A stretch of DNA of 30,522 bases from Peptococcaceae bacterium BRH_c23 (GTDB lineage Bacteria; Bacillota_B; Desulfitobacteriia; Desulfitobacteriales; Desulfitobacteriaceae). The stretch's first letter is position 1. Each line of letters starts with the position of its first letter. The DNA is taken from positions 1 to 30,522 of the forward strand of contig LADV01000186.1 of the NCBI GenBank assembly GCA_000961805.1. Direction: 5' to 3'. The position numbers and the translations under genes are program-made. Below the pieces are notes generated by a model. It searched no databases. It was given only the letters and a program-made list of their open reading frames with translations, and was not told the DNA's origin. Positions 3,255-13,624 of the stretch are shown here, in pieces.

Positions 3255-5339
3255 TTGAGAATCAAAGTTAAAGACTTCATGACGACTAATGTTATTAAAC
3301 TGCAATGGGGCGATTCAATTCAGAAAGCTATCAACATTATGGTGCAATATCGTATTGACGGTATGCCAGTTGTTGATAATTACAACAAACTAGTAGGCAT
3401 ATTTACGAAGACCCATGCTTTAAGGGCTATAGGATTGGACGAGAAGGTTACTGTTGGTGAACTAATGAAGCAAGATGTAATCACGGTTAGAGAAGATGCA
3501 CAACCTGAGGAAGCCTTACAGCTTCCGGTTGGAAGACTACCAGTGGTTGATTATAATGGAGAGCTTGTGGGTATTATCACAAGAACCGACATAATGAAGG
3601 CGTTCCAGCGGCAACTAGAGTATGCGGTAGAAGAACATAATGCAATTATCAATTCAGGGCATAATGCGATAATTGCGGTTGACAAAAATGGGAAAATTAT
3701 AGTCATTAATAAGTCTGCCGAAAGGCTGATAGGGGTACCACTGGAAGAAGTTATTGGTAAATCAATCGAGGATTTAATTCCTGAATTGAATTTAACCAAC
3801 GTGATGCATACGGGGGTTGCTGAGCTAGTTCGGAAAATTGTTATTGGTCAGAAGGTGTTATTGGTTAATAAGAACCCTATTATTAGCAGAGGTGAAGTCA
3901 TTGGCTCAGTGGGTATATTTCAGGATATTTCTGAGCTGGAACATATTTCTCATGAACTTAAGACTGTTCAGGAAATTAATAAAGAGTTAAACACAATCCT
4001 TGATTTTTCCGCCGATGGTTTTGTTATCGCCAACGGTCAAGGGATTGTCCTTAGAGACAATAAATCTAGCCGTAAAATGCTTGGTATCCAAGAAGTAAGC
4101 ATAGTCGGGCGGCATGTCAACTGGCTTATTGAAAGTGGCTATACCTTTGAGTCGGTGACACTAAAAGTGTTGGAAAAGAAGGGACCGATAACCATCTTTC
4201 AGCACCTTAGTTCGGGCCGTGAAATCGTTCATACTGGCACACCAATTATGGATGAGAATGGCGTTATTACACGGGTAGTCGTGAATTTGCGTGATTTATC
4301 GGAACTGAACTTTTTACGGGAGCAACTTAGAGAGGCTCAAACATTATCCGTCAAATACTTTAATGAACTGGATAAGTTCCGCAAGGAACAAATGAGTTCG
4401 GACATCATAATTCGAAGTGCCGTCATGGCGGAGAAGATTGAAACCGTTATCAAGGTAGCCCAAGTGGATTCTACAGTTCTGATCTTAGGTGAGTCTGGAG
4501 TAGGCAAAGAGCCGATTGCTGGCATCGTGCATAAAGCGAGTAACCGGGCTAATAATCCCTTTATTAAATTAAATTGTGCTTCCATTCCAGCCAATCTCAT
4601 AGAAGCAGAGCTTTTTGGGTACGAAGGCGGGTCGTATACTGGTGCAAACAAGGAAGGTCGTCCAGGCCTGTTTGAAATTGCCAACAGCGGAACACTGTTT
4701 CTAGACGAGATCGGGGAGTTGCCTTTTGATATGCAATCCAAACTGTTAAGAGTTTTACAAGAAAGGGAAATATACCGGGTAGGGGGACGAAAATCCATCA
4801 AATTGGATGTACGCATTGTCGCAGCAACCAACAGAGACTTGGAGCATATGGTTAGGGTCGGTAAGTTTCGTTCAGATTTATTTTACCGCCTTAATGTGAT
4901 ATCAATCTGGATTCCGCCTTTAAGGGATAGAAAAGAAGACATTCCACCACTCATTCATTATTTCTTAGAGAAATATAACAAAAAATATAATAAACATAAA
5001 AATGTTTCTCCTCAATTAGTGGAAAGATTTATCTACTGCCAATGGCAGGGCAATATCAGGGAACTGGAGAACACAATCGAAAGAATGGTAGTTCTGAGTC
5101 ACGGGGACCTCATAGATACGGATTTTCTAACTGAAGGGGAACGCAGCCTACCGTTAACGGAACCCACAAGTATGAATCTGAAGGACATTTTGGATCAGAC
5201 TGAGAGAAACTTAATTCAGCGAGTTTATGAAGAATGTAAAAGTACTCGAAAAGCTGCCAAGATATTAGGTATAGACCAATCGACGATCGTTAAGAAAATG
5301 AAAAAGTACTCCGAGACTGATTCTTTACGTAATCAGTGA
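3255..5339 (+). CDS. Sigma-54-dependent activator, CBS-CBS-PAS-PAS-AAA+-Fis HTH
   Basis: The 694-residue bacterial enhancer-binding protein starts at TTG 3255, which has the only good ribosome site (AAGGAGG). Domains in order: CBS pair (about 1-117), PAS (about 128-230), PAS (about 243-350), AAA+ sigma-54-interaction domain (about 383-615) and Fis-type HTH (about 663-685). Walker A is GESGVGKE (412-419), the sigma-54 contact loop is GSYTGA (459-464, usually GAFTGA), Walker B is TLFLDEI (480-486) and the arginine-finger region is FRSDLFYR (538-545). It lacks a receiver domain, so ligand sensing by PAS or CBS is likelier than phosphorylation. The second CBS motif seems about four residues short before RLPVVD. 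It sits just upstream of a sigma-54 promoter and repeated dyads, so it very probably activates the bss-type and bbs operons; effector unknown. Confidence 0.93.
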   Translation: MRIKVKDFMTTNVIKLQWGDSIQKAINIMVQYRIDGMPVVDNYNKLVGIFTKTHALRAIGLDEKVTVGELMKQDVITVREDAQPEEALQLPVGRLPVVDYNGELVGIITRTDIMKAFQRQLEYAVEEHNAIINSGHNAIIAVDKNGKIIVINKSAERLIGVPLEEVIGKSIEDLIPELNLTNVMHTGVAELVRKIVIGQKVLLVNKNPIISRGEVIGSVGIFQDISELEHISHELKTVQEINKELNTILDFSADGFVIANGQGIVLRDNKSSRKMLGIQEVSIVGRHVNWLIESGYTFESVTLKVLEKKGPITIFQHLSSGREIVHTGTPIMDENGVITRVVVNLRDLSELNFLREQLREAQTLSVKYFNELDKFRKEQMSSDIIIRSAVMAEKIETVIKVAQVDSTVLILGESGVGKEPIAGIVHKASNRANNPFIKLNCASIPANLIEAELFGYEGGSYTGANKEGRPGLFEIANSGTLFLDEIGELPFDMQSKLLRVLQEREIYRVGGRKSIKLDVRIVAATNRDLEHMVRVGKFRSDLFYRLNVISIWIPPLRDRKEDIPPLIHYFLEKYNKKYNKHKNVSPQLVERFIYCQWQGNIRELENTIERMVVLSHGDLIDTDFLTEGERSLPLTEPTSMNLKDILDQTERNLIQRVYEECKSTRKAAKILGIDQSTIVKKMKKYSETDSLRNQ

Positions 5340-5354
5340 TGGTAATTGGCATCG
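5337..5354 (+). promoter_or_regulatory. Putative enhancer site 1 of the bss-type operon
   Basis: Dyad TGATG-N8-CATCG, starting on the stop codon of the activator gene. Its centre is about 130 bp upstream of the -24 GG. The same dyad with the same 8-bp spacer recurs at 5404 and three times before bbsA. Confidence 0.65.
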
Positions 5355-5403
5355 ACGATATTTACTAACAGGAGTCCATAGTTTTTTATTAATGTATAAA
5401 AAA

Positions 5404-5421
5404 TGATGAAGAAGCGCATCA
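5404..5421 (+). promoter_or_regulatory. Putative enhancer site 2 of the bss-type operon
   Basis: Dyad TGATG-N8-CATCA. Its centre is about 63 bp upstream of the -24 GG and 67 bp from site 1. It fits a binding site for the Fis-type HTH of the adjacent sigma-54 activator; that assignment is inferred. Confidence 0.7.
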
Positions 5422-5472
5422 GTGTTTATTTGAAAATTCAGAAATTTGGGCATATTCAAACCTTTTATAAGG

Positions 5473-5490
5473 TTGGCACATTATTTGCAT
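5473..5490 (+). promoter_or_regulatory. Sigma-54 (-24/-12) promoter of the bss-type operon
   Basis: TTGGCAC-N5-TTGCAT matches the sigma-54 consensus, with the required 10 bases between the GG (5475-5476) and GC (5487-5488). Transcription would start near 5500, leaving a leader of about 110 nt before the gamma-subunit gene. No other element in this gap looks like a better promoter. Confidence 0.9.
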
Positions 5491-5557
5491 TGTAATTGGT
5501 AAAATAACACACTTCATCACCTAGTAAACGTTATTTTTGGCGCTTATGGAGGTGGTA

Positions 5558-5582
5558 TTGTACTGCAGCTATTGTAGTACAA
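5558..5582 (+). other. 5'-leader hairpin just before the gamma-subunit ribosome site
   Basis: TTGTACTGCA (5558-5567) pairs with TGTAGTACAA (5573-5582) through ten pairs including one G-U, around a GCTAT loop. It sits in the mRNA leader of the sigma-54 transcript and may protect the message or tune initiation. Confidence 0.5.
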
Positions 5583-5608
5583 CAATTTAAATGAGGGGAG
5601 GTACATTT

Positions 5609-5791
5609 ATGGCAAATTGTTCACAATGTAAGTCCTTCTTTGAAATTCCGGAAGGCGCTGATGATTTTACACCCGGCAAAGGTGATTGTGTGCGTCAAGA
5701 GCAGGATGCAAAAGGTAAATGGTATGAATCCAAACCAGTAATGGGCGATACAGCGAGCGACAAATGTCCAAAATTTGCTCAGAAGAACTAA
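5609..5791 (+). CDS. bssC: Arylsuccinate synthase gamma subunit (BssC-like, Fe-S small subunit)
   Basis: A 60-residue protein with four cysteines at 4, 7, 27 and 53 (NCSQCKSF, GDCVRQ, DKCPKFA), the pattern of the small HiPIP-like 4Fe-4S subunits of benzylsuccinate synthase. In Bss, BssC binds alpha away from the active site and is needed for a stable, active complex. I chose ATG 5609 over the in-frame ATG 5591 because the ribosome site GGGGAGG lies between them, 7 nt before 5609. The alpha gene follows after 23 bp, in the canonical C-A-B order. Which small subunit (B or C) is judged mainly by order. Confidence 0.85.
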   Translation: MANCSQCKSFFEIPEGADDFTPGKGDCVRQEQDAKGKWYESKPVMGDTASDKCPKFAQKN

Positions 5792-5814
5792 GAATTAGGA
5801 GGAGGGGATAAGGA

Positions 5815-8409
5815 ATGGCAACCAGACATCAACCGATAGAATATAAAGGGAAAGTCATTGATTTTCCTTTTGATAATCCGGCGGAAGAAACTATCCCAGA
5901 TTCAGAAGTTCATGAACATTTAGCTAATCCAACGACTGAGCGGACTAAAAGACTGAAGGCCAGATGTCGTTGGAAGCACTCCGCTGGTGGTGAGTTTGTT
6001 GAAGGAGACGTAAAAGCAGGAATTGAACGGATGCGCTTAATTACTGAGGCTTATAAAACAAACACAGGAAAGCCACACGTTATTCGAAGAGCCAATCTAT
6101 TATCGAATCTTCTCAATAATTGTACAGTAATTGTCCAAGAAGATGAACTCATCGTCGGCTTTAATGCCGAGAATCCTAACTATGTTCCGCTATATCCTGA
6201 GCAGTCCTATATGGCTTGCATGGATTATATTTTAGACCCAAAAATTGCTCCCCAGCCGGTAGAAGAAGCCAGAGAATTGGCTGAGTATTGGATCGAGCAT
6301 TCTCTTCAAAAGAAATGTGAAACATATTTTACACAACATGAGCTTGAAGTTATGTACTCCATGAGTACCTTAGAAACACCTGGTTTTGCGACTGGCTTTA
6401 ACAGTGTTGTTCCTCCGTATGAAACAGTAATAGAAGATGGACTGTTAAAGAGAATCGAGTTAGCAGAGCGACACATCGAGGCTGCTAAGGAAGTACTAGG
6501 ATCAGAAAACTGGGATGCTCCTGCAAGACTAAAACTACTTCCCCAAATTGATCTCTGGCAAGCTATGATTATTGCCTCCAAGGCAGCAATTTCATGGGCC
6601 AGGAGACATGGTCGACTCTGTAGGATTATCGCAGAAAACTTTGAAACCAATCCCCAACGTAAAGAAGAGCTGCTAATGATGGCTGAGATTTGCCAGCGGG
6701 TTCCGGCTGAACCGTGCCAAGGGTTGCGGGATGGCATGCAGGCTAAATGGTTCACATTCCTGATATGTCATGCTCTCGAACGTTACAGCAGCGGCTACGC
6801 GCATAAACCCGATAAACTGTTTTGGCCGCTTTATAAGGCTAGTGTAATAGATAAGAGTTTCCAGGCCATGAGCCATGAAGACGCTGTAGAGCTCTTCGAA
6901 TGTGAACGTCTAAAAATCTCCGAGAATGCCCCTGGAAAGTCTAGAGGCTATCGTGAAGTTTTCCCTGGATCAAACGATCTATTCATTTTTACGTTGGGCG
7001 GTCTGGAGAGAGATGGTTCTGACGGGTGTAATGACTGTACAGACGCTATTTTAGAAGCTGCTCGAAATATCCGAACAACTGAGCCTTCCATTGTTTTCCG
7101 TTGGAACCCTAAGGGTCGACTTAAAACTAAAAATCTAGTCTTTCAATGTGTTAGAGATGGATTGGGCTACCCGTCAATTAAACATGACATCATAGGTACT
7201 CAACAGATGGTGTATTATTCCCAGTTTAGCCAAAACAAGAACGGTGCTACTTTAGAAGAAGCACATGATTGGGCTAATGTGCTTTGTATGTCTCCAGGGC
7301 TTGTCGGAAGGAGAAAGACCCAGAAATCCAGGAGTGAAGGCGGTGGGTCCATCTTCCCGGCGAAGATCATGGAAGTTACCCTTAATAACGGGTTTGACTG
7401 GAGCTTCACCGGCATGCAATTGGGACCACAAACTGGTAATGTTGAAGACTTCAAGACCTTTGAGGATTTATGGGAAGCCTTCCGTAAACAGTATCGTTGG
7501 GGCATGGACTTGATGATCAGGGCTAAGGATGTCTCCAGGTACTGGGAAACTAAAATTCTCGAGAACCCGTTTATCTCAGCAATAGATGACGGCTGTATGG
7601 AACTGGGTAGAGAATCGATGGAATTGTCCGAGCAACCCAATGGTTGGCATAACCCCATTACGACCATCGTTGCGGCAAACTCCCTGATTGCCATTAAGAA
7701 GCTAATTTTTGATGATAAAAAATATACCTTCCTGGAACTGAAGAAAGCTATGCATAGTAACTGGGAAGGGTATGAAGAAATGCGTAAGGACTTCCTGAAT
7801 GCTCCGAAATGGGGTAATGACGACCCGTACGCAGATGACATTGTTAAGGCTTTCTATGAAGATATTATTTCCGGTGAAATGAGAAAGATTGTTAACTACT
7901 CCGGTGGTCCTGTGCTTCCAACCGGCCAGGCGATAGGTTTGTATATGGAGATTGGTTCTCGTACAGGTCCTACCCCTGATGGTCGGTACGGAGGAGAAGC
8001 ATGTGATGACGGTGGTATCTCACCTTATATGGGAACCGATAAGAAAGGACCCACCGCTGTACTGCGTTCTGTATCCAAAGTAAATGCGGCTACCCAAAAG
8101 GCTAATCTTTTGAACCAGCGTTTGTCAGCCCCCATTATGCGGAGCAGTAAAGGCTTTAAGATCTGGCTGGCCTATATGAATACGTGGAACGATTTAAATA
8201 TTGATCATATCCAGTTCAACGTCGTAAGCAATGAGGAAATGCAAGCTGCTCAGCAAGAACCGGAGAAACATGGCGATTTAATAGTCCGTGTTGCTGGTTT
8301 CAGTGCCCGCTTTGTTGATTTATCAACCTATGCTCAAAATACCATTATGGCTCGCCATGAACAAGACTTTGAAGCGAAGGATTTTGATTATCTAGGTCTT
8401 GATCTGTAA
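5815..8409 (+). CDS. bssA: Arylsuccinate synthase alpha subunit, glycyl radical enzyme (BssA/HbsA type)
   Basis: The 864-residue catalytic subunit adds the methyl group of an aromatic to the double bond of fumarate. The radical-storage motif RVAGFSARF places the glycyl radical at Gly828. The thiyl cysteine is Cys491 in VLCMSPGLVG. Both lie within a residue or two of benzylsuccinate synthase numbering, and the length matches BssA. Arg506, Trp611 and Gln705 correspond by a 2-residue offset to BssA residues I recall as contacting fumarate. Other recalled pocket positions give Phe195 (Tyr in BssA) and Ile707 (Val in BssA). The small Fe-S subunits, MoxR/VWA pair and bbs genes exclude pyruvate formate-lyase and hydroxyphenylacetate decarboxylase. 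Substrate is undecided among p-cresol, toluene and xylenes; the hcrA-like gene favours p-cresol. Confidence 0.93.
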   Translation: MATRHQPIEYKGKVIDFPFDNPAEETIPDSEVHEHLANPTTERTKRLKARCRWKHSAGGEFVEGDVKAGIERMRLITEAYKTNTGKPHVIRRANLLSNLLNNCTVIVQEDELIVGFNAENPNYVPLYPEQSYMACMDYILDPKIAPQPVEEARELAEYWIEHSLQKKCETYFTQHELEVMYSMSTLETPGFATGFNSVVPPYETVIEDGLLKRIELAERHIEAAKEVLGSENWDAPARLKLLPQIDLWQAMIIASKAAISWARRHGRLCRIIAENFETNPQRKEELLMMAEICQRVPAEPCQGLRDGMQAKWFTFLICHALERYSSGYAHKPDKLFWPLYKASVIDKSFQAMSHEDAVELFECERLKISENAPGKSRGYREVFPGSNDLFIFTLGGLERDGSDGCNDCTDAILEAARNIRTTEPSIVFRWNPKGRLKTKNLVFQCVRDGLGYPSIKHDIIGTQQMVYYSQFSQNKNGATLEEAHDWANVLCMSPGLVGRRKTQKSRSEGGGSIFPAKIMEVTLNNGFDWSFTGMQLGPQTGNVEDFKTFEDLWEAFRKQYRWGMDLMIRAKDVSRYWETKILENPFISAIDDGCMELGRESMELSEQPNGWHNPITTIVAANSLIAIKKLIFDDKKYTFLELKKAMHSNWEGYEEMRKDFLNAPKWGNDDPYADDIVKAFYEDIISGEMRKIVNYSGGPVLPTGQAIGLYMEIGSRTGPTPDGRYGGEACDDGGISPYMGTDKKGPTAVLRSVSKVNAATQKANLLNQRLSAPIMRSSKGFKIWLAYMNTWNDLNIDHIQFNVVSNEEMQAAQQEPEKHGDLIVRVAGFSARFVDLSTYAQNTIMARHEQDFEAKDFDYLGLDL

Positions 8410-8489
8410 TTAAGTTAAATAGGTACAGGGGAGTGCTGGGGTGCTAGTACTCCCTTGCTCAAACACTGTGTTGCCTTTATTTATCCAAT

Positions 8490-8660
8490 CGTAAGACTCC
8501 CACTTCTACAAGTGGGAGTGGTACCCCCGGCTCCGCTTCGGTGGGGGTAGAGTCCATCCTACGGCGCGAATGTATTCGTCAGTTGTCTGCGCCTTCGGCG
8601 TAAGTCTCCACTGGAGACTTACGTCACCGAAGACTCGATGTTCAACTTTAGTTGAACGAG
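8490..8660 (+). mobile_element. Hairpin-rich element resembling an IS200/IS605-type end or derived MITE
   Basis: No gene fits the 283 bp between the alpha and beta genes, but about 170 bp is packed with dyads. These are ACTCCCACTT/AAGTGGGAGT (8496-8519, loop CTAC), TACCCCC/GGGGGTA (8522-8549), CGAAT/ATTCG inside GGCG/CGCC (about 8562-8594), CGTAAGTCTCCA/TGGAGACTTACG (8599-8623) and GTTCAAC/GTTGAAC (8640-8657). It is more GC-rich than its surroundings. Short imperfect terminal hairpins of this kind, without terminal inverted repeats, are typical of IS200/IS605 ends and their palindromic remnants. No transposase or TnpB frame remains. It lies inside the operon transcript, so it also forms a structured spacer in the mRNA. 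Identity rests on resemblance only. Confidence 0.45.
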
Positions 8661-8692
8661 TTCACTAAACTATAGGTAGGAGTGAGAAATGT

Positions 8693-8911
8693 ATGGCAGG
8701 TAGTTATGATATGGTTATTGAGATGGGGACCACCAAGGCCTGTTCGAGTTGTAAATGGGGTAACGCTGACTTCGTTAACCCTTTAAGGGGAAACTGTGTT
8801 GGTGCAAAGAACCATATGGGCGGTATCTGGAAAAGAATGATTCAGGATTATTATAATTGTACTTGTGGTAAATACGAAGAAGGGGACGTCAATTTCAGAG
8901 AACACGTATAA
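8693..8911 (+). CDS. bssB: Arylsuccinate synthase beta subunit (BssB-like, Fe-S small subunit)
   Basis: A 72-residue protein with cysteines at 17, 20, 35, 56 and 58 (ACSSCKWG, GNCVG, NCTCGKY), consistent with the HiPIP-like 4Fe-4S fold of BssB. In benzylsuccinate synthase, BssB sits over the active-site channel and controls how open the alpha subunit is. ATG 8693 follows GGTAGGAGTGAG. Unlike typical bss operons, where A and B nearly touch, 283 bp of structured DNA separates this gene from alpha, so its dose may be set separately. A perfect 18-bp hairpin follows it. Confidence 0.85.
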   Translation: MAGSYDMVIEMGTTKACSSCKWGNADFVNPLRGNCVGAKNHMGGIWKRMIQDYYNCTCGKYEEGDVNFREHV

Positions 8912-8916
8912 GGATA

Positions 8917-8956
8917 GTTAATAACATGTACTCCGTAAGGAGTACATGTTATTAAC
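8917..8956 (+). terminator. Perfect 18-bp hairpin with GUAA tetraloop between bssB and bssE
   Basis: GTTAATAACATGTACTCC (8917-8934) and its exact complement (8939-8956) enclose GTAA, a GNRA-type tetraloop. A six-T run comes only about nine bases later, so it may be a leaky terminator, an RNase-stop stabiliser or a processing element. It would keep structural-subunit mRNA above that of the downstream accessory genes. Confidence 0.55.
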
Positions 8957-9108
8957 ATATGCTCTTTTTTGTACAGGCTTACCTCTATATGTTGTATTGG
9001 GAATTCTGTGCACTGTATCGGTGGCGTTGACTCTCCCTTCGTCGCGAAGTGTTCCTTTTGGATTTATGTCTTCTGCCAAATAATAATAAAAACTGGGGGG
9101 TCAGTATC

Positions 9109-9987
9109 ATGGCAAATGATAAAAAGCTTGTGAGTTTAACAGTCCCCAAACTAGATCCATTTTTTTATATTGACAAAGAACTTCGCGTGATCCTGGAAAG
9201 AATGGAAAATCTTTCTAGAAAGCACCCTATAAATATCTTGGTTAGCGGAAAACAGGGTTGTGGAAAGTCTTCTTTGGTCAGTCAATTTGGAGCGGTCTAC
9301 AACCGGCCAACAGCTCATTTCCAAATCGGAATATTATCCGAACCAGGGCAATTGTTTGGTGAACAGACTTTGAAAAACGGGGAGACGAGTTATCGACCCT
9401 ACCTATTTCCGGAAGCGCTTCAAACCCCAGGCTGTGTTATTCATTTAGAAGAAATCAACCGACCAGAAAACCCCAAAGCCTTGAACATGCTGTACTCGAT
9501 TTTGGCTGAAGATAGGGAGATCTGGATGGATGAATTAGGTTTAATTAAGGTGGCTGATAATGTGGTCTTTTTTGCAACCATGAATGAAGGGGAAGAATAT
9601 ATCGGAACTGAAATGCTTGACCCGGCCTTAAGAGACCGATTTTATACAGTCCTGATGGATTACATTCCTCCAGAAGTAGAGGCAGAAGTCATGGCTCAAA
9701 AAGCTGGTATTAGTCGAGAGCAAGCGCTAGAAATCGTCGGAATTATTAATAAGTTGCGAGGGCATTCCCAATTCCCCATTGATGTCTCTACCAGAACCAG
9801 CTTGATGATCGCCGAATTAGTTGCTTTGGGGACTACAATCAGGGATGCTATAGTGTACAGTTTACAAACAACTAAAGAACATCTTGAATCGATCCTTCTC
9901 ACCCTTCACTTAGAGAACGGAAATGTAGAAAGTAAGGCGAGTGAATATATTCTATTTAATCGGGATATTGAAAAAGTTGCCCGATAG
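9109..9987 (+). CDS. bssE: MoxR-type AAA+ ATPase (BssE-like)
   Basis: A 292-residue MoxR/NorQ-class AAA+ protein. Walker A is GKQGCGKS (47-54), Walker B is VIHLEEIN (110-117), sensor 1 is FFATMN (154-159) and the arginine-finger stretch is DPALRDRF (171-178). BssE follows the synthase subunits in known bss operons and is thought to act as a chaperone or activating ATPase; its exact task is unproven. ATG 9109 has the ribosome site GGGGGG about 8 nt upstream. An in-frame ATG at 9049 has none. It is paired with a VWA protein 18 bp downstream, as NorQ/NorD and CbbQ/CbbO are. About 150 bp of apparently gene-free DNA separates it from the preceding hairpin. Confidence 0.9.
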   Translation: MANDKKLVSLTVPKLDPFFYIDKELRVILERMENLSRKHPINILVSGKQGCGKSSLVSQFGAVYNRPTAHFQIGILSEPGQLFGEQTLKNGETSYRPYLFPEALQTPGCVIHLEEINRPENPKALNMLYSILAEDREIWMDELGLIKVADNVVFFATMNEGEEYIGTEMLDPALRDRFYTVLMDYIPPEVEAEVMAQKAGISREQALEIVGIINKLRGHSQFPIDVSTRTSLMIAELVALGTTIRDAIVYSLQTTKEHLESILLTLHLENGNVESKASEYILFNRDIEKVAR

Positions 9988-10005
9988 ATAAAGGGGGTGG
10001 AGCGC

Positions 10006-11706
10006 ATGACACAAAAACCCAAAGACATAATAACTAAGTTTGTTTATTCGGGAGGGGAAGGAATATCTGACTACTGGAGAACGAATAAATCCCCGATTGA
10101 AACAAAAGAATTAGCCAATTTGTTGCGTTCTACTAGGAGAATTACCAGCTTTATTGGACCTAATGTAGGAAATGTTATTTGGAATGGGATGCGTTCTATC
10201 TCAGTGGATACCGATATTGCCTTAGATCCGCAACTTGTACTGGGCAGGTACCCCATTCCAAGTGATAAGACGGATATTGCGATTGGTACTGTTATTATTA
10301 AAGCATTAAATCAAGCCGAATGGAGTCAGCGTGCCATTGATCAAACATTCGCGAAGTTTGCTAAATCACAAGTGGATGTAAATTACAAGCTGAAAATGTT
10401 TCTGGAAATGGCTGAACAGATTTATATAGATACTGTTTCTAACCGTTCTGTTTTAGGGTTATATACAGAAATGCACCGCAAAGCTACCTTTCAGGAAACA
10501 AAAAGGTATTTTGTGCAGCCACCTTCGCTGGGGGAGTTAATGAATATTTGGTGGATAATGGGCGGAGACAGAAGTGGATGTAAATACCAAGAGGAATTTT
10601 CGCGTGAAATTCATAACGTACGAGGATATGAGCTGGAACAACATTACAAAGGACCACTCTCTCTGCTCAATTCAATTGTCAGAGAACTAATTGAGGAATG
10701 TCCTAAGATCAAGAGCGTAGTGGATCGCTGTACTTATCGGGTGGGTCTTTATTCTAGAGTTTGGAGTGAGCTGAAAGACATAACCAAATTCTGGACAGGG
10801 GATAGATTCGATCCTCTAATGTTGCAAAAGCCCTCTGAAAATAATGATATCCTCGAGGGATCAGCTGAGCTGCAAAAAACCATTCAGTCAAAATTAGCCG
10901 AAGAGGTTGAATCGAATTTGACTGAGGAAGTTTTTGACCTTACAGAAGATATTGGCCGTATTTTAGGTGAAGATTCGGATGTAGTGCCAATTAAAGTTAC
11001 GGATAATGTTATACCGTTTATTGAGCCTTTAGACAGAGAACTGATGTACAAGTTATACATTGCATTAAGGAGTCATGCGAAAAAAAGAAATATCTTCAAT
11101 AGGGGACTGAAAAGTGGCAAGCTTGATTCTAGGCGCTTGTATAGAGCCCCCATTAACGGGAATATTTTTTGCTATAAAAAACAAGAACTCGAGATGAATA
11201 GTGATGTTGTTCTATTGGTAGATGCTACGGGTTCACTGGGTGGACCAAAATGGAAACTTGTGCAGAAAATATACCGGGCTCTATTTGAAGCTGTAAACAG
11301 CTTTAACAGTAATACCCGGATCTTTAGTTATTCAGAAGTTAAAGGAGAATGTACTCTTACAGAACTGACCCCTTCGCATGGAATGTTTTATACAGTGATC
11401 CCCAGGGGCAAGACTGCATCTGCTGAGGCAATTATCGCCACTGCTTTAATGTTGAAAAAGCATGCCAAGCGTCCGTTTATTATACATTTAACGGATGGAG
11501 CTTCAAACTGGGGGAGCGAGGTTAAGCTAGCCATTGATTACTGTAAACAAAAAAAAATTAGCTTGAAGACCCTTGGTTTTGGCTGCTCGTCAAGTAATAT
11601 GGTTGGCTTAAAAGAAGAGTATGACAACCAGGTCGTGTTTGTGGAGGGCTTAAAAGAACTTCCCAAAGAATTCGCCAAATTATTGGCGAATACGAATTAT
11701 TTATAA
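10006..11706 (+). CDS. bssF: VWA-domain protein, partner of the MoxR ATPase (BssF-like)
   Basis: A 566-residue soluble protein with a C-terminal von Willebrand A domain. The metal-ion-dependent adhesion motif is D406-A-T-G-S410 (consensus DxSxS or DxTxS), followed by GKTAS and HLTDGASNWG segments. The N-terminal 380 residues have no motif I recognise, apart from an acidic stretch around 295-325 (LAEEVESNLTEEVFDLTEDI). MoxR-VWA pairs remodel or insert cofactors into partner enzymes, so this pair probably services the glycyl radical synthase. ATG 10006 is preferred over GTG 9997 because AAGGGGG lies 8 nt before it. The assignment to BssF is by operon position rather than by motif. Confidence 0.78.
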   Translation: MTQKPKDIITKFVYSGGEGISDYWRTNKSPIETKELANLLRSTRRITSFIGPNVGNVIWNGMRSISVDTDIALDPQLVLGRYPIPSDKTDIAIGTVIIKALNQAEWSQRAIDQTFAKFAKSQVDVNYKLKMFLEMAEQIYIDTVSNRSVLGLYTEMHRKATFQETKRYFVQPPSLGELMNIWWIMGGDRSGCKYQEEFSREIHNVRGYELEQHYKGPLSLLNSIVRELIEECPKIKSVVDRCTYRVGLYSRVWSELKDITKFWTGDRFDPLMLQKPSENNDILEGSAELQKTIQSKLAEEVESNLTEEVFDLTEDIGRILGEDSDVVPIKVTDNVIPFIEPLDRELMYKLYIALRSHAKKRNIFNRGLKSGKLDSRRLYRAPINGNIFCYKKQELEMNSDVVLLVDATGSLGGPKWKLVQKIYRALFEAVNSFNSNTRIFSYSEVKGECTLTELTPSHGMFYTVIPRGKTASAEAIIATALMLKKHAKRPFIIHLTDGASNWGSEVKLAIDYCKQKKISLKTLGFGCSSSNMVGLKEEYDNQVVFVEGLKELPKEFAKLLANTNYL

Positions 11707-11728
11707 ATTAAAACCTAGGAGGGATCTT

Positions 11729-12715
11729 ATGTCTACAGAGGCGTTAAAAATAGAAACAGAGATAAGAGAGCCTTTGATATCTAATATTCAGCGTTACTCC
11801 CTTCAGGACGGACCGGGATTTAGAACAACTATATTTTTTAAGGGATGTCCCTTACGGTGTCCTTGGTGTCATAATCCGGATACGCACTCCATCGAACCGG
11901 AAATAAGTTATTATTTTGAAAAGTGCATCGGTTGTGGGAGATGCGCCGAGGGTTGTTCAACTGGGGCAACCTATACTGAAGTGAAGGGGCAAGGGTCAGT
12001 TCTAAGGTATGATAGAAGCAAGTGCAGTGGTTGCGGAAAGTGTGCAGAGGCTTGTTTATCAGGGGCAAGGGATATCGCTGGTCGAAAAATGCCGCTGAAG
12101 GAAATTATTCGAGAAGCAACTGCAGACGCGATGTTTTTTTTCAATTCCGGCGGGGGCGTGACGATAAGTGGTGGAGATCCTATGTTATTCCCAGACTATA
12201 CTATAGAATTGGCAAGGCTCCTTAAAAAAGAAGGGCTTCATGTAGCGCTTGAGACCTCAGCGTTTGGTCAATGGCAACATCTTGAAAGACTACTAAACTA
12301 CATAGATTTATTTTTAATCGATATTAAGACAATGGATGCAGATAAATGTAAAAATGTGATTAAGGGAGATTTGAAGGTTATCTTAGGAAATTTTGAGAAA
12401 CTAGTTGAAGCCGGCGCCTCTGTACGGGCAAGATTACCGATTATACCAGGTTTTAATAATAGCCAGAGTGATTATGAAGCTTATACCGAATACCTAAGCA
12501 AATTTGTCGGGAAAATTGATGCTGTAGACCTTTTGCCATTCCATAGTTACGGCGAAAAAAAGTATCAGTTGCTGGGGAGAATGGAAAGTTATCAGTTTCA
12601 AAATGTACACTCCCTAGAGTCTAAAGAACTAAAGCCTTTTTTAATCATGCTAATTGAAGCGGGTTTTATCTCCGGCCAAAGTCTGACAGTCGGTGGTTTA
12701 ATAGGCGTAAAATAA
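11729..12715 (+). CDS. bssD: Glycyl radical enzyme activase, radical SAM (BssD-like)
   Basis: A 328-residue radical SAM enzyme that installs the glycyl radical on the alpha subunit. The SAM-cluster motif is C40-PLR-C44-PW-C47. Two ferredoxin-type 4Fe-4S motifs follow (C66, C69, C72, C76 and C99, C102, C105, C109), as in BssD and other activases with a two-cluster insert; PFL activase lacks these. SGGGVTISGGDPML is the usual activase signature. ATG 11729 has the ribosome site AGGAGGG. The gene is last in its operon, whereas bssD is first in Thauera and Azoarcus. It is followed by the bbs control region. Confidence 0.93.
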   Translation: MSTEALKIETEIREPLISNIQRYSLQDGPGFRTTIFFKGCPLRCPWCHNPDTHSIEPEISYYFEKCIGCGRCAEGCSTGATYTEVKGQGSVLRYDRSKCSGCGKCAEACLSGARDIAGRKMPLKEIIREATADAMFFFNSGGGVTISGGDPMLFPDYTIELARLLKKEGLHVALETSAFGQWQHLERLLNYIDLFLIDIKTMDADKCKNVIKGDLKVILGNFEKLVEAGASVRARLPIIPGFNNSQSDYEAYTEYLSKFVGKIDAVDLLPFHSYGEKKYQLLGRMESYQFQNVHSLESKELKPFLIMLIEAGFISGQSLTVGGLIGVK

Positions 12716-12778
12716 GTAAAAGCTGTTGGTCACATTTTATCTTTACCAAGGAGTTTGGTATCATAAGTTCTCAAAAAC

Positions 12779-12796
12779 TGATGAATCCAAACATCG
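12779..12796 (+). promoter_or_regulatory. Putative enhancer site 1 of the bbs operon
   Basis: Dyad TGATG-N8-CATCG. Its centre is about 161 bp upstream of the bbs -24 GG, and 19 bp (about two helical turns) from site 2. Confidence 0.65.
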
Positions 12797-12797
12797 T

Positions 12798-12815
12798 AGA
12801 TGACATTTGTCATCA
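12798..12815 (+). promoter_or_regulatory. Putative enhancer site 2 of the bbs operon
   Basis: Dyad AGATG-N8-CATCA, one base off the consensus. Inside it, GATGACA-TT-TGTCATC (12799-12814) is a perfect palindrome. The centre lies about 142 bp upstream of the -24 GG. Confidence 0.65.
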
Positions 12816-12861
12816 ATACAGGTATCTGTTGGTATACGCTAATCTTTTATAAGGTTCCTAC

Positions 12862-12892
12862 AAAACTGATGATATATTTCATCAGTTTTTTT
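12862..12892 (+). terminator. Terminator of the bss-type operon
   Basis: AAAACTGATGA and TCATCAGTTTT form an 11-bp stem around TATATT and run into seven Ts. It lies about 150 bp after the activase stop. It contains the third copy of the enhancer-like dyad, so one sequence may serve both purposes. Confidence 0.65.
12867..12884 (+). promoter_or_regulatory. Putative enhancer site 3 of the bbs operon
   Basis: Dyad TGATG-N8-CATCA, identical in arms and spacing to the site at 5404. The centre is about 73 bp upstream of the -24 GG and 69 bp from site 2, close to the 63/67-bp geometry upstream of bssC. Confidence 0.65.
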
Positions 12893-12945
12893 CACAATAA
12901 TTTTAATATTCTAATAATACTGCGCAATTAGTGACTGTGCTGAGT

Positions 12946-12963
12946 TTGGAATGAATCTTGCAA
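12946..12963 (+). promoter_or_regulatory. Sigma-54 (-24/-12) promoter of the bbs operon
   Basis: TTGGAAT-N5-TTGCAA has exactly 10 bases between GG (12948-12949) and GC (12960-12961). The -24 block is less ideal than TTGGCAC, so this promoter may be weaker than that of bssC. It predicts a leader of about 225 nt before bbsA, in which I see no gene. Confidence 0.82.
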
Positions 12964-13198
12964 TGATTAACGATATTAATGATTACCTATGTGTAATGTC
13001 AACTGTATGTACCAAATGAAATAGGCTAGTTCTGGTTAAGGCCAAGTGCAACTCATTGAAGAAAATTTGGTAAAACCAAGTCTCGACTAAAACAAGGTGT
13101 AATCATACCCTGTGACAATCAAAACAAAGGAGGGAACGTTTATTTACAACGACAATCAAGGTTTCGTCTAGAAATTATAAAAGAATGGAGCTGTTAGA

Positions 13199-13624
13199 AT
13201 GAGCGGTCAACCTACTATTGACACCAATGAACCGGTTTTTTTTCACCCTGATTTATTCGTCGTTCCAACGAACGGGGAAGCACCTTACCTTTTGGGGTAC
13301 AAATGTGAGGATTGTGGTAAAGTATGGTTTCCAAAATTAGAGATATGTCCCGAGTGTTGGACGGATTTAAAACAAATTACCTTAAGTAGAAGTGGGAAAT
13401 TGTACAGTTATTCTATTATTCATATAGGTCAAAGAGGGATCAAGTCCCCATACGCAGTTGGTTATGTGGATTTTCCAGAAGAGGTACGAATCTATGCTCA
13501 ATTGGCCATTCCACACGAAAAATTAAAATTGGGAATGGATGTGGAAGTTATTGAGGGTGTTGTTAGGTTGGATAAAAATAGTAATCCAGTCATGCTCAGC
13601 TATATGTTCAAAGCAGTAGAGTAA
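13199..13624 (+). CDS. bbsA: Zinc-ribbon/OB-fold subunit of the aroylsuccinyl-CoA thiolase (BbsA-like)
   Basis: A 141-residue DUF35-type protein: an N-terminal rubredoxin-like zinc ribbon (C36-x2-C39-x10-C50-x2-C53) followed by an OB-fold. In BbsAB of toluene degraders this subunit pairs with the thiolase BbsB, and the complex cleaves (S)-2-benzoylsuccinyl-CoA into benzoyl-CoA and succinyl-CoA. ATG 13199 has a modest ribosome site (GGAG, about 10 nt away). A better one at 13126-13134 precedes no ATG, GTG or TTG frame. It is the first gene of an operon that keeps the bbsA-to-bbsH order, with the thiolase 29 bp downstream. Confidence 0.88.
   Translation: MSGQPTIDTNEPVFFHPDLFVVPTNGEAPYLLGYKCEDCGKVWFPKLEICPECWTDLKQITLSRSGKLYSYSIIHIGQRGIKSPYAVGYVDFPEEVRIYAQLAIPHEKLKLGMDVEVIEGVVRLDKNSNPVMLSYMFKAVE

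What the first reader, a model, noticed from the sequence alone, without database searches (positions are those of the whole stretch)
5337..12963. A shared TGATG-N8-CATC(A/G) dyad marks two sigma-54 operons as one regulon
Five copies with an invariant 8-bp spacer lie at 5337, 5404, 12779, 12798 (first base A) and 12867, all in or at the edge of the two intergenic regions that carry -24/-12 promoters. Distances from dyad centre to the -24 GG are alike: about 63 and 130 bp for bssC, and about 73, 142 and 161 bp for bbsA. A sigma-54 activator with a Fis-type HTH is encoded immediately upstream. This predicts the activator's operator and one regulon for fumarate addition and the following beta-oxidation. 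Thauera and Azoarcus instead use a two-component system (TdiSR/TutCB) for these genes.
Basis: partly seen in the sequence, partly recalled or inferred. Interest (0 to 1): 0.75.

Follow-up and report, generated by a model that had tools for sequence, protein, structure and literature searches.

The report
Shared activator sites for toluene operons
An oxygen-free toluene-degrading bacterium appears to switch on its two toluene-breakdown operons with one activator protein that reads the same short mirrored DNA word in front of both, and the same word sits in much the same place in related bacteria.

Summary
Five GATG-N8-CATC dyads (5337, 5404, 12779, 12798, 12867) lie upstream of GG-N10-GC promoters at 5473 (bssC) and 12946 (bbsA). 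The window's own genome is not held, so relatives were used. Of 15 bss/bbs promoter regions from five sources (window, G015, G026, G037, G169), 14 carry the dyads: 29 sites, shuffle mean 0.07, against at most 3 at any other spacer; G026 bbs has none. Distances to -24 recur (about 62/129, 72/140/160, 82/169). In five held genomes all 13 tandem-dyad matches lie at bss or bbs operons. The likely binder is the CBS-PAS sigma-54 activator encoded just before bssC: among 195 homologous activators, dyads near the gene follow one helix-turn-helix type (fitted set 19 of 21 versus 0 of 90; held-out 8 of 9 versus 9 of 75). So the dyad is the operator of a wider activator clade, not of this regulon alone; toluene sites favour TGATGA-N6-TCATCA, paralogs TGATGC/T. 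Geometry equals the TyrR/GcsR box. Sigma-54 was not found in two of the assemblies. Binding, inducer and transcription starts are untested.

The parts
3255..5339 (+). one-component sigma-54 activator: 2 CBS, PAS, AAA+ (GSYTGA loop), C-terminal Fis/TyrR-type HTH
   Evidence: Pfam; GSYTGA at residue 459; below the PrdR equivalog cut-off
5241..5297 (+). HTH core STRKAAKILGIDQSTIVKK (residues 663-681) of the activator
   Evidence: residue and base numbers counted by hand
5337..5354 (.). distal bss dyad TGATGGTAATTGGCATCG; its TGA is the activator's stop codon
5404..5421 (.). proximal bss dyad TGATGAAGAAGCGCATCA
5473..5489 (+). -24/-12 promoter TTGGCACATTATTTGCA before bssC
5609..5791 (+). bssC (60 aa), first gene of the bss operon
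   Evidence: translation; homologs in relatives
5815..8409 (+). bssA, glycyl-radical catalytic subunit
   Evidence: PFL-like and Gly_radical; 74-94% identity in relatives
8693..8911 (+). bssB (72 aa)
   Evidence: translation; homologs in relatives
9049..9987 (+). AAA+ MoxR/NorQ-like ATPase (BssE-like)
   Evidence: label recalled
9997..11706 (+). VWA-domain protein
11729..12715 (+). bssD, radical-SAM activase
   Evidence: TIGR04003 best hit, below its cut-off
12779..12796 (.). bbs dyad 1 TGATGAATCCAAACATCG
12798..12815 (.). bbs dyad 2 AGATGACATTTGTCATCA
12867..12884 (.). proximal bbs dyad TGATGATATATTTCATCA
12946..12962 (+). -24/-12 promoter TTGGAATGAATCTTGCA before bbsA
13199..13624 (+). bbsA, first gene of the bbs beta-oxidation operon
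   Evidence: NF053627 best hit, below its cut-off

Best explanation
The dyads are upstream activating sites for the CBS-PAS sigma-54 activator encoded at 3255-5339. Dimers bind two (bss) or three (bbs) 18-bp boxes of consensus TGATGA-N6-TCATCA, 60-170 bp upstream of the -24/-12 promoters; an inducer or energy signal read by the CBS/PAS domains lets the AAA+ domain assemble and remodel sigma-54 RNA polymerase. The bss and bbs operons are thereby induced together. Shown by sequence: sites, spacings, conservation, and association with the HTH type. Inferred: binding, oligomerisation, signal and direction of control (activation).
For: 14 of 15 bss/bbs promoter regions examined carry the dyads: 29 sites, shuffle mean 0.07 and maximum 2 in 2000 shuffles, 29 hits at spacer 8 and at most 3 at any other spacer from 0 to 24. 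Spacing to -24 recurs in sets. All 13 forward tandem matches in the five held bss/bbs-bearing genomes, at 11 promoters, lie at bss or bbs operons (one search places read). HTH type goes with dyads: 19 of 21 versus 0 of 90 in the set used to write the rule, then 8 of 9 versus 9 of 75 held out, p = 4.5e-6. Same geometry (18 bp, G-N14-C) as TyrR boxes and the sigma-54-dependent GcsR sites, three of them upstream of an RpoN site (PMC4374768 and PMC4894688, passages). The best-scoring solved HTH by sequence is a TyrR homolog (E = 0.0007).
Against: No binding or expression data. Sigma-54 was not found in assemblies G037 and G169 by two profiles, though both have such promoters; they are 90% and 85% complete. 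G026 has bss dyads but no dyad and no good promoter before its bbsA. The promoter that fits G026 bss spacing has TCGC in place of TTGC and was chosen by hand; a canonical one lies 168 bp further down. Activators L140 and L141 of G015 have no dyad within 600 bp; for L140 the next dyad is about 0.9 kb off, before the divergent bbs operon, and L141 lies some 8 kb downstream of the bss2 dyads. L221 has a matching HTH and no dyad. The tandem pair also occurs in 49 of 393 other genomes, and one reversed-control match falls in G169. The promoters, and the activators, are related by descent, so the p values overstate.
Confidence: 0.87

Rival explanations
1. The dyads are operators of a different regulator (for example a repressor or global factor), and the adjacent activator uses other sites.
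For: No binding data here; other short shared elements exist, such as TTCAGAA 33-35 bp upstream of -24 in 3 of 12 promoters plus TTCCGAA in a fourth.
Against: Dyads sit beside activators of one HTH type in several genera, often at or near the activator's stop codon, with different downstream genes; activators with clearly other HTH types mostly lack them (within 200 bp: 1 of 157 under a relaxed, post hoc rule).
Confidence: 0.08
2. The palindromes act as RNA hairpins: terminator of bssD at 12867 (A-run, stem, T-run) or attenuators.
For: 12867 is flanked by AAAAC and GTTTTTTT.
Against: The consensus scan found no terminator-like site at 12650-13250; the A and T runs are not kept in the relatives' regions printed; the arms keep one sequence rather than compensating (GATG/CATC, by construction of the search); the sites lie upstream of the predicted starts of the operons they precede.
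Confidence: 0.03
3. Chance, or shared descent of unconstrained DNA.
For: Single loose dyads occur at 25 places in G001.
Against: Spacer letters and flanks have diverged among relatives while arms and spacing persist; shuffles give a mean of 0.07 against 29 sites.
Confidence: 0.02

Closest known systems
TyrR boxes / GcsR sites (TyrR-like enhancer-binding proteins)
   Same: 18-bp palindrome with G-N14-C (TyrR 6-N6-6); for GcsR, three sites upstream of an RpoN promoter next to the regulator gene (PMC4374768, PMC4894688, passages)
   Different: half-site TGATGA instead of TGTAAA/TGTAACG; regulator has CBS-PAS sensors; targets are toluene genes
Clostridiales sigma-54 regulons incl. PrdR (PMC6615313, abstract, outline and passages)
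   Same: one-component PAS/CBS activators beside sigma-54 promoters with UAS sites
   Different: PrdR and 14 further groups are reported as TGT-N10-12-ACA; no GATG string occurs in the main text; the motif figure and supplement could not be read, so a GATG motif there is not excluded
TdiSR control of bss-bbs in Azoarcus sp. CIB (PMC5874301, one passage)
   Same: one operator type proposed for both PbssD and PbbsA
   Different: two-component system, -35/-10 promoters, operator GGTGTTCGCACC; not found in the window with up to 2 mismatches
Geotalea/Geobacter bss with sigma-54 Fis-family regulators (PMC11497800, passages)
   Same: sigma-54 activator gene next to bss
   Different: regulator gene divergent from bss there; no operator named in the passages seen; not compared by sequence here

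Membership tests
sigma-54 one-component enhancer-binding protein | AAA+ sigma-54 interaction domain and Fis-type HTH | tested here: met
   PF00158 230 bits, PF18024 57.9, PF02954 27.1
sigma-54 one-component enhancer-binding protein | GAFTGA loop | tested here: met
   variant GSYTGA at residue 459; variants such as GSFTGA and GAYTGA are accepted in PMC6615313 (passage); GSYTGA itself is not named there
sigma-54 one-component enhancer-binding protein | -24/-12 promoter downstream of the sites | tested here: met
   both window promoters and 14 of 15 regions examined; G026 bss weak and hand-picked, G026 bbs none
sigma-54 one-component enhancer-binding protein | rpoN in the genome | tested here: inconclusive
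   found in G001, G015, G026; not in G037 and G169; the window's own genome is not held
TyrR/GcsR-type box | 18-bp palindrome with G-N14-C | tested here: met
   G at 2 and C at 17 in 29 of 29 sites, by construction of the search; outer T in 24 of 29, outer A in 18 of 29
TyrR/GcsR-type box | TGTAAA/TGTAAC half-site | tested here: not met
   half-site TGATGA
PrdR equivalog (NF041552) | curated score cut-off 795 bits | tested here: not met
   537.6 bits
TdiSR system | GGTGTTCGCACC operator | tested here: not met
   0 matches with up to 2 mismatches in the window
any of the above | protein-DNA binding shown | not testable with these tools
   needs EMSA or footprint

The most novel reading that the evidence does not exclude
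TGATGN-N6-NCATCA is the operator of a whole clade of CBS/PAS sigma-54 activators in Bacillota-type anaerobes, readable from the HTH sequence ([ST][ST]R followed by [DN]QST.V[RK]K). Within it the recognition-helix residue K680 (R in the paralogs) sets half-site base 6 (A instead of C/T), so the toluene activator became insulated from sister activators of acyl-CoA-type operons by a single-residue change.
Probability: 0.3. Interest if true: 0.65.

Novelty: new variant of a known kind. Interest (0 to 1): 0.55.

Why it matters
It gives a testable operator, regulator and regulon for anaerobic toluene activation in a Desulfosporosinus-like lineage; the listings of searches showed no paper on such control in Gram-positive degraders. 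It also suggests an HTH-to-operator rule that could assign targets to many unassigned sigma-54 activators.

Tried and rejected
Rejected readings: RNA terminator or attenuator; TdiR-type operator; a known Rfam element (none in the window at gathering threshold); PrdR membership.

Weak leads. Helical phasing of sites: Rayleigh p about 0.04-0.06 for proximal and 0.004-0.2 for distal distances depending on the period; distances were partly hand-picked and promoters are related by descent, so I claim only recurrent spacing sets. D/N at the start of the recognition helix does not predict base 6 (by eye). K/R does correlate (A at base 6: K-type 11 of 18 half-sites versus R-type 6 of 100; 44 of 58 in the 14 toluene promoters), but all K-type loci with dyads are bss activators, one lineage, and five K-type loci have no dyad (L140, L141, L163, L164, L221). 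The only held-out K-type locus of the strict class, L221, has none, so that prediction is untested and stays a hypothesis. The R-type prediction (A in under 20%) held: 5 of 34.

Failed part of my own prediction: I wrote beforehand that class-negative held-out activators would have dyads in under 5%; the result was 9 of 75. Four of these (L250, L296, L304, L267) have near-class HTHs; five (L235, L266, L277, L289, L301) have single dyads 270-500 bp away. A relaxed rule written after seeing this gives 30 of 38 versus 6 of 157 within 600 bp and 1 of 157 within 200 bp; it is post hoc. Some held-out dyad places (G225, G391, G179, G363, G241) had appeared in the list before, though not their HTHs.

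Rows dropped: G026 bbs (no dyad, no promoter) is left out of the 14 promoters. G001's bbs region, which repeats the window's three dyads, is not counted either. The 195 activators are those I fetched, not all matches, whose lists were capped; one of 112 stretches given to (L215) returned no activator. L061 was counted by hand as having a dyad; one search counts it by rule.

Slip: my bssC and bssB queries were translated one or two bases out of frame, so their rows there mean nothing; one search repeats them in frame for L074, L077, L078, L079 and L129.

The genome-contig scan with the activator gave 13 loci, best 34-44% identical; not used. A BssA search in the order of G169 added nothing: 1 of 4 genomes, G169 itself.

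Full report
What is there. The window holds the activator (3255-5339), bssC-A-B, an AAA+ ATPase, a VWA protein and bssD (5609-12715), and bbs (from 13199), all on +. The five dyads and the two GG-N10-GC promoters are as reported, within 1 bp on distances. The first dyad starts on the activator's TGA stop codon; the same exact overlap occurs in five other activator loci (L037, L039, L156, L212, L234).

Relatives. The window's own assembly is not held. G001 shares 43% of its words; its contig C24 encodes the bss 3' part and bbs at 97-100% amino-acid identity and carries the three bbs dyads at the same spacing, but starts inside bssB. Four of 398 genomes have a BssA at E <= 1e-200: G015, G026, G037, G169. 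Their clusters were fetched. G015 has, on contig C242, two bbs operons and a third, more distant bss-type operon with a 59% identical BssA and a 54% identical BssC.

Footprint. Distances from dyad centre to -24 GG (some worked out by hand from its offsets): window bss 129/62; G015a 126/60; G015b 130/66; G037 129/62; G169a 168/82; G169b 83, with a one-mismatch copy at 170; G026 bss 173/86 only if a weak promoter is taken, 341/254 for the canonical one. bbs: window 160/141/72; G037 159/140/72; G015 66, with one-mismatch copies at 131 and 152; G169a 170/82; G169b, before the o16360-type gene, 168/82. G015 C242 adds two regions (139/86/65 and 128/65, counting, one lower). G026 bbs has none. Over 14 regions, leaving out G026 bbs: 29 sites, 14 of 14 with at least one, shuffle mean 0.07 and maximum 2; the spacer scan 0-24 gives 29 at 8 and at most 3 elsewhere. 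Consensus TGATGA-N6-TCATCA: A at base 6 in 27 of 29, T at base 13 in 17 of 29.

Genome-wide. In G001, TGATGN8CATCR has 25 distinct places (33 strand-matches, reversed control 9), so a lone loose dyad is weak evidence. The stricter TGATGA-N6-TCATCR has 5 places in G001: one at bbs, three inside ORFs, one intergenic about 300 bp before a promoter-like site. The tandem GATG-N8-CATC pair occurs in 54 of 398 genomes. In G001, G015, G026, G037 and G169 the forward matches are 2, 4, 1, 3 and 3; all 13, at 11 promoters, lie at bss or bbs operons. The reversed control gives 0 in the first four and 1 in G169. Among the 29 genomes of the genus, 12 have a pair: 3 are G001, G015 and G026; of the other 9, 7 lie directly beside an activator homolog listed (G009, G012, G016, G017, G019, G023, G027), G008's pair has no activator within 1.5 kb and neither has G004's. 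Reversed control in these 29: 0. I did not place the pairs of the remaining 40 genomes one by one.

Who binds. I tabulated the C-terminal HTH and dyads within 600 bp for 111 activator homologs. A rule [ST][ST]R[KRS].A..LG[IV][DN][QH]ST[IV][VI][RK]K separates them: 19 of 21 with dyads versus 0 of 90. The rule was written on these data, so I recorded a prediction and tested 84 loci from genomes not used for the rule: 8 of 9 versus 9 of 75, p = 4.5e-6. All 195 together, uniform counting: 27 of 30 versus 9 of 165. The sister group in the same genus (HTH STRKAASMLGINQSTVVRK) has the same plan, dyad at the end of the activator gene, second dyad 63 bp on, then in most a promoter, ahead of an SDR/MeaB-like operon or an MFS transporter (gene labels are mine from the translations). 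So the dyad belongs to an activator clade. The toluene sites differ at base 6.

Mechanism and comparison. The 18-bp box with G-N14-C equals the TyrR box, and GcsR shows that such a protein can drive a sigma-54 operon from three boxes. In Fis, Arg85 makes the main base contact and Asn84 a minor one (PMC4784862, passages); by hand alignment these correspond to Q675 and D674 here (Fis sequence recalled, not computed). The signal is unknown: CBS domains often bind adenine nucleotides and PAS domains small ligands (recalled), so toluene or benzylsuccinate and energy state are candidates.

Prior work. In the listings of searches (1 paper; 14; 4; 12 of 39 shown) I saw no paper on control of bss in Gram-positives; the Desulfosporosinus Tol-M paper (whole text) does not treat regulation. 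Nie et al. (abstract and passages) report TGT-N10-12-ACA for PrdR and 14 other groups; their motif figure was not readable. The D. vulgaris sigma-54 paper (passages) has no GATG string in its main text. A sigma-54 activator beside bss is already proposed in Geotalea daltonii.

Noticed in passing
window 5462-5474 and 12844-12856: A second identical 13-mer CTTTTATAAGGTT lies in both promoter regions, just upstream of -24 in bss and between dyads in bbs; among the fetched loci it recurs only in G001's copy of the bbs region.
   Followed up: partly
window 5437-5443 and relatives: TTCAGAA lies 33-35 bp upstream of the -24 GG in window bss, G015a bss and G037 bss, TTCCGAA at 35 in G037 bbs; absent or elsewhere in the other 8 of 12.
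   Followed up: partly
window 8500-8660 and 8925-8955: Hairpin-rich spacer between bssA and bssB and a long inverted repeat after bssB (by eye); no Rfam match in the window.
   Followed up: no
L129 2306-10239 (G015 contig C242): A third, diverged bss-type operon (BssA 59%, BssC 54%) with its own dyads and promoter; it may serve another aromatic substrate.
   Followed up: partly
G037 and G169: No sigma-54 gene found by PF04552 or PF04963 despite sigma-54 activators and promoters; perhaps assembly gaps.
   Followed up: partly
G026: Size and contig number (3.0 Mb, about 210) resemble Desulfosporosinus sp. Tol-M (3.0 Mb, 206 scaffolds), which would hint at the window's genus; not proven.
   Followed up: no
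L080 7593-8748: In G001 the CoA-transferase-like gene o16360 is matched in two pieces (residues 1-118 and 179-424), a gap or break in that assembly.
   Followed up: no
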